NCBI GenBank assembly: GCA_001801885.1
Contig: MGYU01000084.1
Location: 1 to 46,159, forward strand
Direction of reading: 5' to 3'
Source of the DNA: Gammaproteobacteria bacterium RIFCSPLOWO2_12_47_11
GTDB lineage: Bacteria > Pseudomonadota > Gammaproteobacteria > Eutrophobiales > Eutrophobiaceae
DNA: 46,159 nucleotides
The notes beneath the pieces were generated by a model. It had not been told where the DNA came from. It worked only from the letters and a program-made list of their open reading frames with translations, and searched no databases. This document shows, in pieces, positions 19,375 to 29,016 of this stretch (the stretch's first letter is position 1; every line of letters begins with the position of its first letter). Position numbers and translations under genes: made by a program.

Positions 19375-20232
19375 TCAGGCTGCGCGCTTTTGATGCAGTT
19401 CACCGCAGGGGATAAGGACTGGTGACTGGCCACGGCTCAATATTATCAGATGGTTGGGCGGCACCGGTTGCCAGCCGGGATCATTCGTCAACCTCTCGGA
19501 GCTGACGACCACCTCATCGTATATCTGTTGTTCTTTGCCACCGGTCTCATACAAATCTCCACAAAAATAATAAAGTGACTCCGGAGGGTGTTCTCTGTCA
19601 TTGTTATAACGTGAAATGACTGCATTTTCCCCATCGGTAACCGCCACATTCAGATAACTGGGCGCGTTATCGCCAAATTGCTCTACTATTACGGCAACCC
19701 GTTGAATGGCAGTGTCGAGTGCAGCGGCTAGCCCCAGCGCCCCGTTCCCCTGTTTTTTCAGTAATTCATCGATGATAACCGCAAAAAAGTGCTCTGAATC
19801 CGTGCTGCCGAAAACATTACTGAATGCTTCGTCACAAACAGTTTCAAGTAATTTGCGCCGTATTTTCTGGAAATTGCCTACATCACCATTATGCATGCAG
19901 AGATATTTACCAAAACGGAAAGGATGGCAGTTGGCTTCATTGACACCACTCCACTGGGTTGCAGCACGGACATGTGCAAGCACACAGGAACTGGCAATGA
20001 CACGGGACAGGTTATGCAGGTTACGGTTATTCCAGGCCGGCGTAATAGAACGGAACACGGCGGGATCATTGGAAAATTCCGAGGCATACCAGCCAACACC
20101 GAAACCATCACCGTTCAAGGGTTCTTCCCTTTCGTGACTATTGGAACTCTGCCGGATCAGGGAATGCGCAGGTTCAAGCAAAAGAGAACTCAATCGTAAC
20201 GGCGGTCCCAGATAGAGTGTGAATCGACACAT
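19375..20232 (-). CDS. Class II glutamine amidotransferase (EgtC/YafJ-like, Ntn hydrolase)
   Basis: Likely start MCRFTLYLG (Cys2 nucleophile) at 20232; GDGFGVGWY, LAHVRAATQ, NCHPFRFGKYLCMHNGDV. Confidence 0.9.
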   Translation of the reverse strand: MCRFTLYLGPPLRLSSLLLEPAHSLIRQSSNSHEREEPLNGDGFGVGWYASEFSNDPAVFRSITPAWNNRNLHNLSRVIASSCVLAHVRAATQWSGVNEANCHPFRFGKYLCMHNGDVGNFQKIRRKLLETVCDEAFSNVFGSTDSEHFFAVIIDELLKKQGNGALGLAAALDTAIQRVAVIVEQFGDNAPSYLNVAVTDGENAVISRYNNDREHPPESLYYFCGDLYETGGKEQQIYDEVVVSSERLTNDPGWQPVPPNHLIILSRGQSPVLIPCGELHQKRAA

Positions 20233-20457
20233 AGCAGACTCCTGAATGGCAGAAAGACAAGGCAACCTGTTCGCCCGGACAGCACGATACGATCACACTA
20301 AGTATTGTAGGTTTTTCCGGGTTTGCAAATAAAGCCCCAGGCAAACTGGCTCTATTATCAACCTGAAAGTCAGCGTAGTATAATCAATTCATTAAAACTG
20401 CAAGCATAAATACTGCCCTGTTACCTGTGAATTCATTTTGCTGATCCGGATTTGCTG

Positions 20458-21174
20458 ATGGACATCGAATTACCCATACCCATCCTGCCCCAACCCGATG
20501 ATACAACCTGCGGGCCGACCTGTTTGCACGCGGTATATAACTATTATAATGATGCCATTTCACTGGAAGCTGTCATCGCCGATACCACGAAGCTGGAAAA
20601 CGGTGGCACCCTGGCCGTCTTTCTCGCCTGTTCCGCACTGCGACGGGGATACCAGGCCACGATATATACTTACAACCTGCAGATGTTTGATCCAAGCTGG
20701 TTCAGTTCACCTGACATTAATATTGCCGAACGCCTGCAACGTCAGACAAAGGTAAAACAAAATAAAAAACTGGAACATGCTACACAGGGTTATCTGGAGT
20801 TTCTGGAACGTGGCGGCAAATTACGTTTTACTGATCTGAATACCCGCCTGTTGCGCAGTATTATCCGTAGAAAAATGCCGATTTTGACGGGACTGAGTTC
20901 AACTTATCTTTATCGCAGCGAACGTGAATTTGGGCCAAGAGACGATCCGGATGATATTCGCGGGCTGCCGGGCGGACACTTTGTGATCCTGAGTGGTTAC
21001 CACAGACAAGACCGTACCATATTGATCACCGATCCCTATCTGAAAAACCCGGTCGCACCGGGCCAGTTGTACCCGGTGAACATCGATCGTGTTATCTGTG
21101 CCATTTTACTGGGTGTATTGACTTATGACGCCAACCTGCTGGTGATCCATCCGCGGCGAGAAAAAATTATATGA
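20458..21174 (+). CDS. C39-like peptidase family protein (DUF3335-like)
   Basis: PQPDDTTCGPTCLHAVYNYY (Cys) and GGHFVILSGYHRQDRTILITDPY (His/Asp); stop overlaps next start (ATGA). Confidence 0.82.
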   Translation: MDIELPIPILPQPDDTTCGPTCLHAVYNYYNDAISLEAVIADTTKLENGGTLAVFLACSALRRGYQATIYTYNLQMFDPSWFSSPDINIAERLQRQTKVKQNKKLEHATQGYLEFLERGGKLRFTDLNTRLLRSIIRRKMPILTGLSSTYLYRSEREFGPRDDPDDIRGLPGGHFVILSGYHRQDRTILITDPYLKNPVAPGQLYPVNIDRVICAILLGVLTYDANLLVIHPRREKII

Positions 21175-22643
21175 CAATTCTGTTGGTCGTAAACAACCCG
21201 AATAGCTGGCCCCTGCATATTCCGGGGGTAGTCGTGACCTCGGCCCGTTCCTACCTGACTGACCCCGCATTCAGTGAGGACCGCTCAACCAAGGTATTCA
21301 ATCTGTGCCGTTCCTATGCTTATCAAAGCAGCGGTTATTATGTTTCACTGCTGGCGGCCGCCCGGGGACATAAACCGTTGCCGGACATCAACACCATCCA
21401 GGACCTGAAATCACAGTACGTAATCCGTGCATTGTCAGAAGAAATGGAAGAACAGATCCAGACCGCATTCAGGCGGTTGCAGTCCAAAAAATTTACATTG
21501 AGTATCTACTTTGGCAGGAATACCGCAAAACATTACAACAGCATAAGTTTGCGTTTGTTTGATATTTTCAAGGCCCCGTTACTGCGCGCGCAATTCGTCA
21601 AGGACAAAATCTGGCAACTGGACTCCATACGCACGATAACCGTAAGCGATATTCCGGAAAGCCACCGTAAATTTGTAATTGACTGTGCAACGGATTATTT
21701 TTCCGGCAGAAAGCGGCGTGTCAGAAAACGGACTACACCAAGATTTGATCTGGCACTTCTGTATAACCCCGAGGAAAAGGAGCCCCCTTCAAACAGCAAG
21801 GCAATCAAAAAATTCCAGAAAGCGGCTGAGGCGGTAGGTCTTGATCTTGAATTAATAACGAAAAACGACATGCATCGCCTGGCTGAATTCGATGCGCTTT
21901 TTATTCGCGAAACGACTGCGGTCAACCACCATACTTTCCGAATCGCACAACGCGCAGTTGCAGAAGGACTGGTTGTCATGGACGACCCGGACTCCATGCT
22001 GAAATGCTCCAACAAGGTGTATCTGGCTGAATTATTTACACGGCATTCCATCCCTATTCCTAAAACCCTGGTTATTCATCGAAACAATATTGATGAAATC
22101 CAAAAAAACCTGGGTCTGCCATGCATACTCAAACAGCCCGACAGTGCATTTTCAATGGGAGTTACCAAGGTTGATACTGTGGATGAACTGAACCAGGAAG
22201 TCACACGCCTGTTGTCAAAATCCGACCTGATCGTAGCACAGGAATTTCTGCCAACAACTTTCGACTGGCGAATTGGAATTTGTGACAGGCGTCCATTATA
22301 TGTCTGCCGTTACTATATGGCACGCCGACACTGGCAGGTTTATAAACGTGATGAATCCGGTAATGCGCATAGTGAAGGTGAATCCGACACGATATCAGTC
22401 GGCGAGGCACCGGATGAGGTCATTAAAACAGCACTCAAGGCGGCAAATCTGATTGGCGATGGTCTTTATGGCGTGGATTTGAAACAGATCGGAAACAAGT
22501 GTTATATCATTGAGGTCAACGATAACCCGAATATTGACACAGGGACTGAAGATGCTGTTTTGAAAGATGCCCTTTACCGGGAGATTATGGGAATCTTTTT
22601 AAAACGCATTGAAGCACGTAAACGCGGCCCGTCACTGGTATGA
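21171..22643 (+). CDS. RimK-like ATP-grasp ligase with N-terminal extension (RLAN type)
   Basis: 490 aa; C-terminal ATP-grasp with GLYGVDLKQIGNKCYIIEVNDNPNID metal-binding motif; about 180-aa N-terminal domain typical of this RimK subfamily. Confidence 0.88.
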   Translation: MTILLVVNNPNSWPLHIPGVVVTSARSYLTDPAFSEDRSTKVFNLCRSYAYQSSGYYVSLLAAARGHKPLPDINTIQDLKSQYVIRALSEEMEEQIQTAFRRLQSKKFTLSIYFGRNTAKHYNSISLRLFDIFKAPLLRAQFVKDKIWQLDSIRTITVSDIPESHRKFVIDCATDYFSGRKRRVRKRTTPRFDLALLYNPEEKEPPSNSKAIKKFQKAAEAVGLDLELITKNDMHRLAEFDALFIRETTAVNHHTFRIAQRAVAEGLVVMDDPDSMLKCSNKVYLAELFTRHSIPIPKTLVIHRNNIDEIQKNLGLPCILKQPDSAFSMGVTKVDTVDELNQEVTRLLSKSDLIVAQEFLPTTFDWRIGICDRRPLYVCRYYMARRHWQVYKRDESGNAHSEGESDTISVGEAPDEVIKTALKAANLIGDGLYGVDLKQIGNKCYIIEVNDNPNIDTGTEDAVLKDALYREIMGIFLKRIEARKRGPSLV

Positions 22644-23893
22644 TGGAAACCATTGGAACGCTCCCGCTGTTTGCGGGTTATGGTATTGAACTCGAATATA
22701 TTATTGTTGACCGCGATCAACACAATGTCCTGCCTGTTACCGATCAGTTACTCAAGGCCGCTGCCGGTGACTATGTCAGTGATTATGAAGAAGGATCCAT
22801 TGCCTGGTCGAATGAACTGGTACTGCATGTCATCGAGTTAAAGACCAACGGCCCGGTCAGTACGCTTACCGGTTTACCGGATCTTTTTTCAGCCAATATC
22901 CATCGTATCAACAAAATCCTCGCAAACATGAACGGCAGGCTGATGCCGGCAGCCATGCATCCCTGGATGGATCCTTTTAAAGAAACCCGGTTATGGCCGC
23001 ATGAGTCTTCCGAGATCTATGATAGTTACAATCGTATATTCAATTGCCAGGGACATGGCTGGTCGAATCTGCAAAGCATGCATATCAATCTGCCGTTTGC
23101 AGATGATCATGAGTTTGCACTATTACATGCTGCCATTCGTATCTTGTTACCGATCATGCCGGCACTCGCCGCGAGTTCACCGATCATGGATGGTCAATAT
23201 AGCGGCTTGCTGGATACGCGGCTGGAAGTCTACCGGCGAAATGCCGAAAAAATCCCCAGCATCACCGGCCTGGTGATCCCGGAACCAGCAGATAATTATC
23301 TCGATTATCAAAACATGATCCTGCAGCCCATGTATGCGGCCATTGCCCCGCATGATCCGGAGGGCATTTTGCAATATGAATGGCTCAATTCCAGAGGGGC
23401 CATTGCCCGCTTCGACCGTAATGCCATTGAGATACGTGTGTTGGATACACAGGAAACGCCACAGGCCGATATCGCCATTGCCGCCATGATCATTACCATC
23501 CTCAAGAAGCTGGCGGCTGCTATATGGTCTGATGTTACTGAACAGAATCAGCTCGACACGGAAGCTCTGGCAGAACTCTTGATGTTGGTCATCAAAGAAG
23601 GTGAATTGGCTACAATTGCAAATAAATCCTATCTTGAATTATTTGAATTCCCGGATCGCAAAGGCCAGGTACAGGAACTCTGGCGATACTTGCTTGAATC
23701 AATATCAGCAGATGATACGGATTTAATCCCGGAACTCAGAAAGACGATTGAATATATCATTCATTGTGGGCCACTGGCACGGCGCATCAAACAATCGATC
23801 GGCAAGGAATGCAAGCGTTCCCATATGGAAGAAACTTATCGCCAACTTTGTGATTGTTTACATGACGGACAACTCTTTGAAGGCATCCGCTAG
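22640..23893 (+). CDS. GCS2 family carboxylate-amine ligase (glutamate-cysteine ligase-like)
   Basis: 417 aa; FAGYGIELEYIIVD start and MHINLPF, overlapping ATGA with the RimK-like gene. Confidence 0.85.
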   Translation: MMETIGTLPLFAGYGIELEYIIVDRDQHNVLPVTDQLLKAAAGDYVSDYEEGSIAWSNELVLHVIELKTNGPVSTLTGLPDLFSANIHRINKILANMNGRLMPAAMHPWMDPFKETRLWPHESSEIYDSYNRIFNCQGHGWSNLQSMHINLPFADDHEFALLHAAIRILLPIMPALAASSPIMDGQYSGLLDTRLEVYRRNAEKIPSITGLVIPEPADNYLDYQNMILQPMYAAIAPHDPEGILQYEWLNSRGAIARFDRNAIEIRVLDTQETPQADIAIAAMIITILKKLAAAIWSDVTEQNQLDTEALAELLMLVIKEGELATIANKSYLELFEFPDRKGQVQELWRYLLESISADDTDLIPELRKTIEYIIHCGPLARRIKQSIGKECKRSHMEETYRQLCDCLHDGQLFEGIR

Positions 23894-24593
23894 AAAAATT
23901 ATTATCTCCTGTGAACATGGTGGAAACCATGTGCCATCGGAATATCATCATTTGTTCAAAGGCAAACAAGCTGTTTTAAATTCTCACCGTGGTCGGGATG
24001 CGGGCGCACTGATGATTGCCAGGGAGCTTGCCAAAAAACTGAATACGCCGCTCACTGTTTCTGAAATTACCCGGCTACTTGTCGATCTGAACCGTTCTTC
24101 ACATCATAGAGCTCTCTTTTCGGAATTCACCAGAAATTGTGATAAAGACACCAGGCATAAAATACTTCGGGAGTATTATTTTCCATACCGGATGCACGTC
24201 GAGAATGAAATCACAAAAGCATTGAAAGTGAAAAAATCAGTGGTCCATTTTTCTATCCATTCATTCACACCCAGACTCGGCAGTGAAACACGTAATGCGG
24301 ATATCGGTTTGTTATATGACCCGGCAAGGAAAGGCGAACGCGATCTCTGCATGAAATTACAGTCGATCCTCCAGGGACAATCGAAAAAGCTGGTGATCCG
24401 GCGCAATTATCCCTATCGGGGCAACGCAGATGGTTTTACCACCTACCTGAGGAAAAAATTTGCAGCTACAAAATATATCGGGGTCGAGATCGAAATTAAC
24501 CAGAAGCATGTCAATCATACTGATCACTGGAAAAGTTTACGCAAGCACATAATTAATTCTGTTATAAGACTAAAACATCTCTCAGGTTATTGA
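23862..24593 (+). CDS. N-formylglutamate amidohydrolase family protein
   Basis: Track ORF starts at 23748, but homologous start MTDNSLKASARKIIISCEHGGNHVP is at 23862. SHRGRDAGA, VHFSIHSFTP, GVEIEINQ motifs; overlaps preceding gene by 32 nt. Confidence 0.88.
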   Translation: MTDNSLKASARKIIISCEHGGNHVPSEYHHLFKGKQAVLNSHRGRDAGALMIARELAKKLNTPLTVSEITRLLVDLNRSSHHRALFSEFTRNCDKDTRHKILREYYFPYRMHVENEITKALKVKKSVVHFSIHSFTPRLGSETRNADIGLLYDPARKGERDLCMKLQSILQGQSKKLVIRRNYPYRGNADGFTTYLRKKFAATKYIGVEIEINQKHVNHTDHWKSLRKHIINSVIRLKHLSGY

Positions 24594-24621
24594 GTGGCTA
24601 AATACTTATAAAACATAAACT

Positions 24622-24963
24622 ATGTCTGCAATTTATAATCTTTGCGCACTCAATGATATTCCGGACCAGAAAGCAAGAGGATTTACACTGGAAACTGAAG
24701 GAAACAAGCTTGAATTTTTCATCGTGCGTAAAGGTGACCAGGTCTATGGTTACATCAATCGTTGCCCGCACACCGGCGTGAATCTCGATTGGCAGCCGGA
24801 TCAGTTTCTGGATTTAACCGGTTACCAGATACAATGCTCCACACATGGCGCTTTATTCAGGATCAGGGATGGTCTTTGTGTTTATGGCCCCTGTCAGGGC
24901 CAGCATCTGACTTCAGTCAATCTGTTACTGGAAAACAACCGGGTGCAGCTTATAACAGGTTAG
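24622..24963 (+). CDS. Rieske 2Fe-2S domain protein
   Basis: 113 aa; CPHTG ... CSTHGALF cluster motifs. Confidence 0.9.
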   Translation: MSAIYNLCALNDIPDQKARGFTLETEGNKLEFFIVRKGDQVYGYINRCPHTGVNLDWQPDQFLDLTGYQIQCSTHGALFRIRDGLCVYGPCQGQHLTSVNLLLENNRVQLITG

Positions 24964-27554: not shown

Positions 27555-28802
27555 TCACGGAATAAACTGCCGGTGGCCATAGGGTTTCCAGGCGGGCGCA
27601 ATCACATTCGGCATGGACGATCGATTCAATAATTGCGCGGGCGCCAGCGTAAATTCACCGTAGCGCATGTTCACTGCATCCATTACGGCATTGATATGCT
27701 GTTGTTTGTTTTCCTTGACCGGATCATCCACAAACATTTCCATCTGTTGTTGCGCAGGCATCGGATCCAGCGCCGTGACCTGCACACCGTGCACACCTTC
27801 CCCTTGCCAGTAGTCAGCAATTACCTGTTCACACAGATCGATGATGACATGGCTGTCACTGGTGGGCATTGCACAACTGAAATGATCACCCAGCCAACCG
27901 TCGTTAACACGCAATGTTATGGAAAAATGTTTGGCCTGCAGGTGATGCCGTCGGAGCCGCGCCGCGAGTTTCTCACTCATGTGCATCAAGTAAGTGCGGA
28001 TCACCTCTTCATCGCGGGTATTGGGCGGCATGACCTTGCCGTGGCCCATCGACTTCGGTGCGGCAATACGGGTTTAGACTTTGGCCGGATCCAGACCCTG
28101 GCACATGTGCCAGATGCGCCGCCCCGGATCACCAAAACGCTGCGCCAGAATACTGATCGGCAATTTCGCCATATCACCACAGGTATGCACACCGTATTTC
28201 GCAAGAAATACACCAATCCCACGGCCAATGCCGCATAACTTTGTTACCGGCACTTCGCACAATGCCTCCCGCGCCTCCCACGGCGGAATCACATTGAAAC
28301 CATCCGGCTTGACCTGCTTTGCGGCGTACTTGGCCGTGGTCTTGTCACCGCTCAGGCCGGCGGTGCAGGTCACTCCCGCAGCTTCGTATACACGTTCCTT
28401 CGCGAGCCGTGCAATATATTCCGGCCCTTTTTTCCAGAACCGCTGGCAATGCGTGACATCAATGAATGCTTCATCAACAGAAAACACCTCCACATCCGGA
28501 CTGATGTCCTGTAATGCCGTCATGACCGCAGTGGAGACTTCGGCATAACGCTGCGGCCGTGCCGGACGCTGGATGATATCCGGACACAACTTCCGCGCCT
28601 CCCTGAGCCGCATGCCGGTGTGTATGCCGTAAACACGCGCCTCGTAGGAAGACGTGATCAGACAGGTGCCTTGTACACCATTGGTGATGCCGACCGGTCT
28701 TCCGCGTAATTCAGGATGATCCATCTGTTCAATCGATGCAAAAAAAGCATCCATATCGATAAAAACAATCGCCCGGGGCCAGTGTTGAGTTTGCGGAATC
28801 AT
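27555..28802 (-). pseudogene. Y-family DNA polymerase (DinB-like) interrupted by an in-frame TAA
   Basis: N-part IVFIDMDAFFASIEQMDHPELRGRPVGI...GLDPAKV* and C-part TRIAAPKSMGHGKVMPPNTRDEE...GHRQFIP* are in the same frame, separated only by TAA at 28076-28074. Confidence 0.85.
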
Positions 28803-28812
28803 GATCAAAATA

Positions 28813-29016
28813 TTAAGCCCGGAACGGGCCAACGCGACACCGGGTTATGTTGCTTATATTCGGCATGGTCTCTGATTTGAACGGCTCAAATATTTTCATC
28901 CCTTTCTCGTCCATAAATCTCTTTGCATAATAGTCTTTACACACTGACTTTTTTCTCTCTGCATCTTCCATACGAACACCGCAACAGTACCAGGCAGTAT
29001 TGGATATTGTGTTCAT
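28813..29016 (-). pseudogene. N-terminal remnant of a class I SAM methyltransferase (leucine carboxyl methyltransferase-like)
   Basis: 67 aa: ISNTAWYCCGVRMEDAERKKSVCKDYYAKRFMDEKGMKIFEPFKSETMPNISNITR resembles the family N-terminus, then stops before the SAM motif. Confidence 0.5.

What the first reader, a model, noticed from the sequence alone, without database searches (positions are those of the whole stretch)
19375..24963. Candidate peptide/amide biosynthesis operon: C39-like peptidase, RimK-like ATP-grasp, GCS2 ligase, N-formylglutamate amidohydrolase, Rieske, with a divergent EgtC-like amidotransferase
Sequence: four genes overlap at start/stop (ATGA, ATGA, 32-nt overlap) and the Rieske gene follows after 28 nt, so they are probably co-transcribed. 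Knowledge: similar RimK/GCS2/peptidase/NFGA neighbourhoods have been predicted by comparative genomics to make unknown peptide metabolites or modify proteins; EgtA (GCS2)/EgtC form a gamma-glutamyl add/remove pair in ergothioneine synthesis. Inference: two ligases build a Glu-containing amide, and the EgtC-like enzyme, NFGA-like hydrolase and C39-like peptidase trim or release it. The Rieske protein hints at a redox step or partner. Product unknown.
Basis: partly seen in the sequence, partly recalled or inferred. Interest (0 to 1): 0.85.

Follow-up and report, generated by a model that had tools for sequence, protein, structure and literature searches.

The report
Unknown-product amide-ligase cassette plus EgtC-like hydrolase
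A four-gene bacterial cassette that probably builds and trims a small glutamate-containing amide turns up in the same gene order in at least ten phyla; here it travels with a fifth, glutamate-removing enzyme, while the neighbouring Rieske iron-sulfur gene is only an older resident of the insertion site.

Summary
In detail: coordinates, ATGA/ATGA/32-nt overlaps and all six family assignments hold. C39-like – RLAN/RimK ATP-grasp – GCS2 – N-formylglutamate-amidohydrolase-like (NFGA) is a real operon: C39/ATP-grasp and ATP-grasp/GCS2 pairs are on one strand in 76 of 76 loci each, GCS2/NFGA in 46 of 46, with median gaps of 0, -4 and -8 nt, in at least ten phyla. Predicted catalytic residues are conserved. 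The outer two genes differ. The Rieske gene is a bystander: 14 relatives carry carA–Rieske with nothing between, including cassette genomes whose cassette lies elsewhere. The window carries a 5.3-kb block, EgtC-like plus cassette, inserted there; relative G321 has the same five-gene block at another site and an uninterrupted carA–Rieske locus. The EgtC-like gene's clade tracks the cassette (7/10 cassette vs 0/30 other relatives; 0/298 other Pseudomonadota), not ergothioneine EgtD, and recurs beside the cassette in Acidobacteriota and Planctomycetota. Best reading: cytosolic synthesis of a gamma-glutamyl-capped peptide; two ligases build, papain-fold, zinc and Ntn enzymes transfer or trim. Product and step order are inference. 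Related cassettes were, from memory, predicted in 2009; new here are the EgtC link, Rieske exclusion and insertion.

The parts
19375..20229 (-). EgtC-like class-II (Ntn) amidohydrolase, fifth member of the inserted block
   Evidence: GATase_4/GATase_6, TIGR03442 197.5 bits under cut-off; Cys2 and HNG motif in all 12 close members printed; co-occurrence; tree
20355..20384 (+). possible sigma-70 promoter of the cassette (TTATCA-18-TATAAT)
   Evidence: number of such sites in the region not clearly above chance (16 found, 11.0 +/- 4.0 expected)
20458..21174 (+). C39-like papain-fold thiol enzyme, no signal peptide seen
   Evidence: Pfam C39_2/C39; invariant Q12, C18, H174, D192 in 31 homologues; fold match to papain-like enzymes
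21171..22643 (+). RLAN domain fused to RimK-like ATP-grasp amide ligase
   Evidence: PF14401, PF08443; invariant K282, K321, D436, E448, N450; fold match to LysX/ArgX/RimK/Ddl
22640..23893 (+). GCS2-family (glutamine-synthetase-fold) carboxylate-amine ligase
   Evidence: PF04107; invariant E17, E19, H148, R260, E264, R266; the only PF04107 match in the genome
23862..24593 (+). N-formylglutamate amidohydrolase-like zinc hydrolase (NFGA)
   Evidence: PF05013; invariant E18, H19, D46, H129, H133, E209, E211; nearest solved relative 2odf
24622..24963 (+). Rieske [2Fe-2S] protein: flanking resident gene, not part of the system
   Evidence: PF00355; carA-Rieske neighbours in relatives without a cassette there

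Best explanation
The system is a five-gene block inserted between carA and a Rieske gene: an EgtC-like amidohydrolase divergent from a four-gene operon, C39-like / RLAN-RimK ATP-grasp / GCS2 / NFGA. Proposed mechanism: (1) the RimK-like ATP-grasp enzyme activates a carboxylate as acyl phosphate and joins it to an amine (its nearest solved relatives add glutamate or aminoadipate); (2) the GCS2 enzyme makes a second amide, most likely capping an amine with gamma-glutamate; (3) the papain-fold thiol enzyme transfers or cleaves one amide through an acyl-enzyme; (4) the zinc NFGA-like enzyme hydrolyses an N-acyl or glutamyl amide; (5) where present, the EgtC-like Ntn enzyme removes the gamma-glutamyl cap. 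Net result: a small gamma-glutamyl-containing peptide built and trimmed in the cytosol. Shown: gene identities, conserved order, conserved predicted catalytic residues, co-occurrence and insertion. Inferred: the reactions, their order and the product.
For: Order and near-zero gaps over many phyla. Two unrelated ligase folds with invariant predicted catalytic residues. Cleaving enzymes with invariant residues. EgtC-like clade tracks the cassette and lies in the same inserted block. Independent hint that this clade acts on GCS2 products: in a Planctomycetia genome the EgtC-like gene starts 29 nt after another GCS2-family (YbdK-type) ligase. No precursor-peptide ORF shared by three or more loci, and no other conserved neighbour.
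Against: EgtC-like is absent from most cassette genomes (6 of 50 sampled have the close form), so it is an accessory. NFGA is missing from 30 of the 76 loci with GCS2, some of them truncated by contig ends. No substrate-binding residues could be compared with a solved glutamate-cysteine ligase (one search found none). Nothing distinguishes a free peptide from a tag on a protein.
Confidence: 0.5

Rival explanations
1. Reversible protein tagging: the RLAN/RimK and GCS2 ligases add amino acids to a cellular protein, as RimK does to ribosomal protein S6, and the C39-like, NFGA and EgtC-like enzymes remove them.
For: The closest solved ligases include RimK and LysX/ArgX, which act on protein carriers or tails. 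Ligase-plus-protease pairs are typical of tagging systems. No transporter is conserved next to the cassette.
Against: No conserved target or tag gene in the neighbourhood; three different cleaving enzymes is a lot for one tag; the system is patchy among related genomes.
Confidence: 0.25
2. A thiol metabolite related to glutathione or gamma-glutamylcysteine: GCS2 makes gamma-glutamylcysteine, the ATP-grasp adds a third residue, and the papain-fold enzyme acts like phytochelatin synthase.
For: The GCS2 family includes glutamate-cysteine ligases; the C39-like model matches the phytochelatin synthase Alr0975 among others; the genome has gshB but no PF04262 gshA.
Against: Glutamate-cysteine ligase equivalog models score far under cut-off. 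Other GshA families were not searched, so glutathione supply may be normal. The fold match is low (TM about 0.45) and not specific.
Confidence: 0.12
3. The EgtC-like gene belongs to ergothioneine biosynthesis, and its place beside the cassette is accidental.
For: TIGR03442 scores 197.5 bits; the genome has egtB and egtD on another contig.
Against: Close EgtC-like genes show no association with EgtD (3 of 7, p=0.68) but a strong one with the cassette (p=6e-6). Seven of eight relatives with the same EgtB type have no EgtC homologue. The EgtC homologues that lie beside EgtB/SenA-like genes form a separate clade. Adjacency recurs in two other phyla.
Confidence: 0.08
4. The Rieske protein is a redox partner in the pathway.
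For: 28 nt downstream on the same strand; also follows the cassette in relative G310.
Against: carA-Rieske with nothing between in relatives without a cassette there; in G309, G313 and G321 the cassette and the Rieske gene lie on different contigs; absent beside the cassette elsewhere.
Confidence: 0.03

Closest known systems
Predicted ATP-grasp/GCS2 amidoligase neighbourhoods (Iyer et al. 2009, PMID 20023723)
   Same: Comparative genomics linked RimK-like ATP-grasp and other amidoligases with peptidases in predicted peptide-making operons (title and citation seen; contents recalled, paper not held).
   Different: EgtC-like member, block insertion and Rieske exclusion come from this work; whether the 2009 paper lists this exact four-gene set could not be checked.
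RLAN/RimK plus GNAT-DUF3335 (C39-like) pair of Proteobacteria
   Same: Same RLAN/RimK ligase family beside a C39-like domain (profile match 96.2% probability).
   Different: N-acetyltransferase fused to the C39-like domain; no GCS2, no NFGA in the loci surveyed.
Mycobacterial EgtA/EgtC gamma-glutamyl add/remove pair
   Same: A GCS2-type ligase with an Ntn gamma-glutamyl amidohydrolase (roles as described in PMC4621440; EgtA as GCS2 family from my own knowledge).
   Different: No EgtB or EgtD nearby; EgtC-like in another clade; GCS2 not matched by an EgtA model.
LysX/ArgX/RimK ATP-grasp ligases
   Same: Fold and catalytic residues of the ligase domain.
   Different: Extra N-terminal RLAN domain, and a different gene context.

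Membership tests
C39 / RLAN-RimK / GCS2 / NFGA cassette | four collinear genes with near-zero gaps | tested here: met
C39 / RLAN-RimK / GCS2 / NFGA cassette | intact predicted active sites in all four enzymes | tested here: met
   roles of the residues assigned from family knowledge
EgtC (ergothioneine) | TIGR03442 equivalog cut-off | tested here: not met
   197.5 of 218.65 bits; an EgtC next to an EgtB-like gene also just misses it (217.2), so the cut-off alone is not decisive
EgtC (ergothioneine) | co-occurrence or linkage with EgtB/EgtD | tested here: not met
EgtC (ergothioneine) | N-terminal catalytic Cys2 of Ntn amidohydrolases | tested here: met
EgtA / glutamate-cysteine ligase | passes a GshA/EgtA equivalog model | tested here: not met
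EgtA / glutamate-cysteine ligase | makes gamma-glutamylcysteine | not testable with these tools
   needs enzyme assay
RimK (S6 modification) | passes the RimK equivalog model | tested here: not met
   25.9 of 331 bits
RimK (S6 modification) | glutamylates ribosomal protein S6 | not testable with these tools
   needs enzyme assay
Graspetide/RiPP pathway | conserved precursor-peptide gene nearby | tested here: not met
   none shared by three or more loci among 22-90-aa ORFs with a Shine-Dalgarno-like motif within 1.5 kb
Rieske as pathway component | conserved linkage to the cassette | tested here: not met

The most novel reading that the evidence does not exclude
The cassette makes an undescribed gamma-glutamyl-protected peptide metabolite used across at least ten phyla, with the EgtC-like enzyme as an optional deprotecting step.
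Probability: 0.3. Interest if true: 0.75.

Novelty: new variant of a known kind. Interest (0 to 1): 0.5.

Why it matters
A compact four-enzyme cassette kept in the same order across distant phyla almost certainly makes or edits one defined product, yet I found no product described. The survey fixes what belongs (four core genes, EgtC-like as accessory) and what does not (Rieske), and names cultured hosts in which the product can be sought.

Tried and rejected
Rieske as partner (rejected). EgtC-like as ergothioneine EgtC (rejected as the main reading). RiPP precursor (none found; very small ORFs and ORFs without a Shine-Dalgarno-like motif would be missed). Another conserved neighbour such as a transporter (an MFS-like family lies near five loci at differing positions; one member confirmed as MFS, not followed further). 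Foreign base composition of the block: GC 0.43-0.50 against 0.51 for carAB, not clearly foreign. Sequence search of GCS2 against solved structures gave nothing usable. Contexts of EgtC-like genes away from the cassette show no shared partner. The 2009 amidoligase paper could not be read; literature searches found no experimental study of the cassette.

Full report
Observation. ATGA overlaps join C39-like to RLAN/RimK (21171) and RLAN/RimK to GCS2 (22640); NFGA overlaps GCS2 by 32 nt from ATG 23862; the Rieske gene starts 28 nt after NFGA. Each family assignment is supported by Pfam. NCBIfam places the ligase nearest the RimK/LysX families and the GCS2 nearest YbdK, all under cut-off.

Is the core real? 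RLAN occurs in 56 of 299 genomes of the phylum and 12 of 40 relatives. A search of 85,488 species genomes returned the best 80 RLAN loci. With profiles grown from the window genes, 82 loci hold RLAN with C39 or GCS2; 45 of them hold all four genes and 25 lack only NFGA, several because a contig ends (one genome, L043 = L145, is counted twice). C39-RLAN and RLAN-GCS2 are on one strand in 76 of 76 loci each, GCS2-NFGA in 46 of 46, with median gaps 0, -4 and -8 nt. Record titles include Gamma- and Betaproteobacteria, Desulfobulbaceae, Planctomycetota, Verrucomicrobia, Acidobacteriota (Vicinamibacteraceae), Spirochaetes, Nitrospirota, Bacteroidetes, Balneolaceae, Ignavibacteria and Omnitrophota. 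This order cannot be chance.

Active sites. Over 21-31 homologues per family, these residues are invariant: ATP-grasp K282, K321, D436, E448, N450; GCS2 E17, E19, H148, R260, E264, R266; C39-like Q12, C18, H174, D192; NFGA E18, H19, D46, H129, H133, E209, E211. Their catalytic roles are assigned from knowledge of the families. The YbdK-type HxH motif reads HxN (H148, N150) here, in the one pairwise alignment made. The RLAN/RimK model (pLDDT 85) matches LysX, ArgX, RimK and D-Ala ligases. The C39-like model (pLDDT 92) matches papain-fold proteins: bacteriocin-transporter C39 domains, an isopeptidase (PeiR) and phytochelatin synthase Alr0975. So 'peptidase' is not proved; an acyltransferase is as likely.

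Rieske. Homologues occur in 24 of 40 relatives whether or not they have the cassette. In 14 relatives (G332, G308, G313, G320, G305, G321, G306, G309, G319, G301, G307, G329, G304, G316) carA and the Rieske gene are direct divergent neighbours, in 11 of these followed by the kinase gene that lies further downstream in the window. G309, G313 and G321 have the cassette elsewhere. So the gene was most likely there before the block. The only other genome in which it follows the cassette is G310, a close relative with the same insertion.

The inserted block. In the window, G310, G322 and G311 the cassette lies beside carA. G311 has no EgtC-like gene at this site and no Rieske homologue. G321 has EgtC-like plus all four core genes at another place (L143, no carA, Rieske or kinase detected) and an uninterrupted carA-Rieske-kinase locus (L188). 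The simplest account is that EgtC-like and the cassette form one unit that moved at least once. Base composition gives no independent support.

EgtC-like. Close homologues (over 200 bits) occur in 7 of 10 cassette relatives, own genome included, and 0 of 30 others (Fisher p=6e-6), with three on contigs away from the cassette; there is no association with EgtD (p=0.68). In 298 other Pseudomonadota the best score is 180 bits. Of 50 cassette genomes over many phyla, 6 have a close form; in Planctomycetota it is 4 of 9 cassette genomes against 10 of 199 random ones, whose cassette state is unknown (p=0.0014). These tests treat related genomes as independent. In L064 and L072 the gene lies convergently right after NFGA, a different layout from the window, so the adjacency is not one inherited arrangement. 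The tree has three main clades: homologues beside EgtB/SenA-like genes, a second clade mostly from Pseudomonadota, and one with 13 of the 15 cassette rows that are not beside EgtB, plus 12 others. The own genome has egtB-egtD on another contig, and seven of eight relatives with that EgtB type have no EgtC homologue, so ergothioneine does not explain the gene.

Sister context. The other RLAN/RimK clade pairs with a GNAT-DUF3335 fusion whose C39-like part is related to ours. A published survey notes that DUF3335 is often fused to GNAT domains that might act as peptide ligases or acetylate (PMC10318531). Both settings thus join this ligase to a papain-fold domain and to an enzyme able to modify an amine. 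That is inference.

Mechanism and limits. The best-supported reading is build-and-trim of a gamma-glutamyl-containing small amide. Protein tagging remains open. Which amine and carboxylate are used cannot be read from sequence, and MAG incompleteness (own genome 91.8% complete) weakens absences.

Noticed in passing
L123-L142, L146, L153-L162: Sister RLAN/RimK clade sits beside a GNAT-DUF3335 (C39-like) fusion in many Proteobacteria, sometimes on the opposite strand.
   Followed up: partly
L288:263-2916: In a Planctomycetia genome with the cassette elsewhere, an EgtC-like gene starts 29 nt after a YbdK-type GCS2 ligase with a long N-terminal extension.
   Followed up: partly
L226:8378-10556 (own genome, contig C114): Adjacent egtB and egtD genes, so the organism probably makes ergothioneine.
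   Followed up: yes
window:27555-28832: Two adjacent minus-strand ORFs (28074-28832, 27555-28049) look like one Y-family DNA polymerase broken by a frameshift or an assembly error.
   Followed up: no
L056:12725-15190: A GH57/DUF3536 gene follows GCS2 by 20 nt in place of NFGA in one deltaproteobacterial cassette.
   Followed up: no
L085:12707-13504: A divergent FGase-family gene missed by the window-derived NFGA profile overlaps GCS2, so NFGA absence is somewhat overcounted.
   Followed up: partly
G000:C45:22594-23532: gshB present with no PF04262 gshA found in the genome and no gshA among the genes checked beside gshB; other gshA families not searched.
   Followed up: partly
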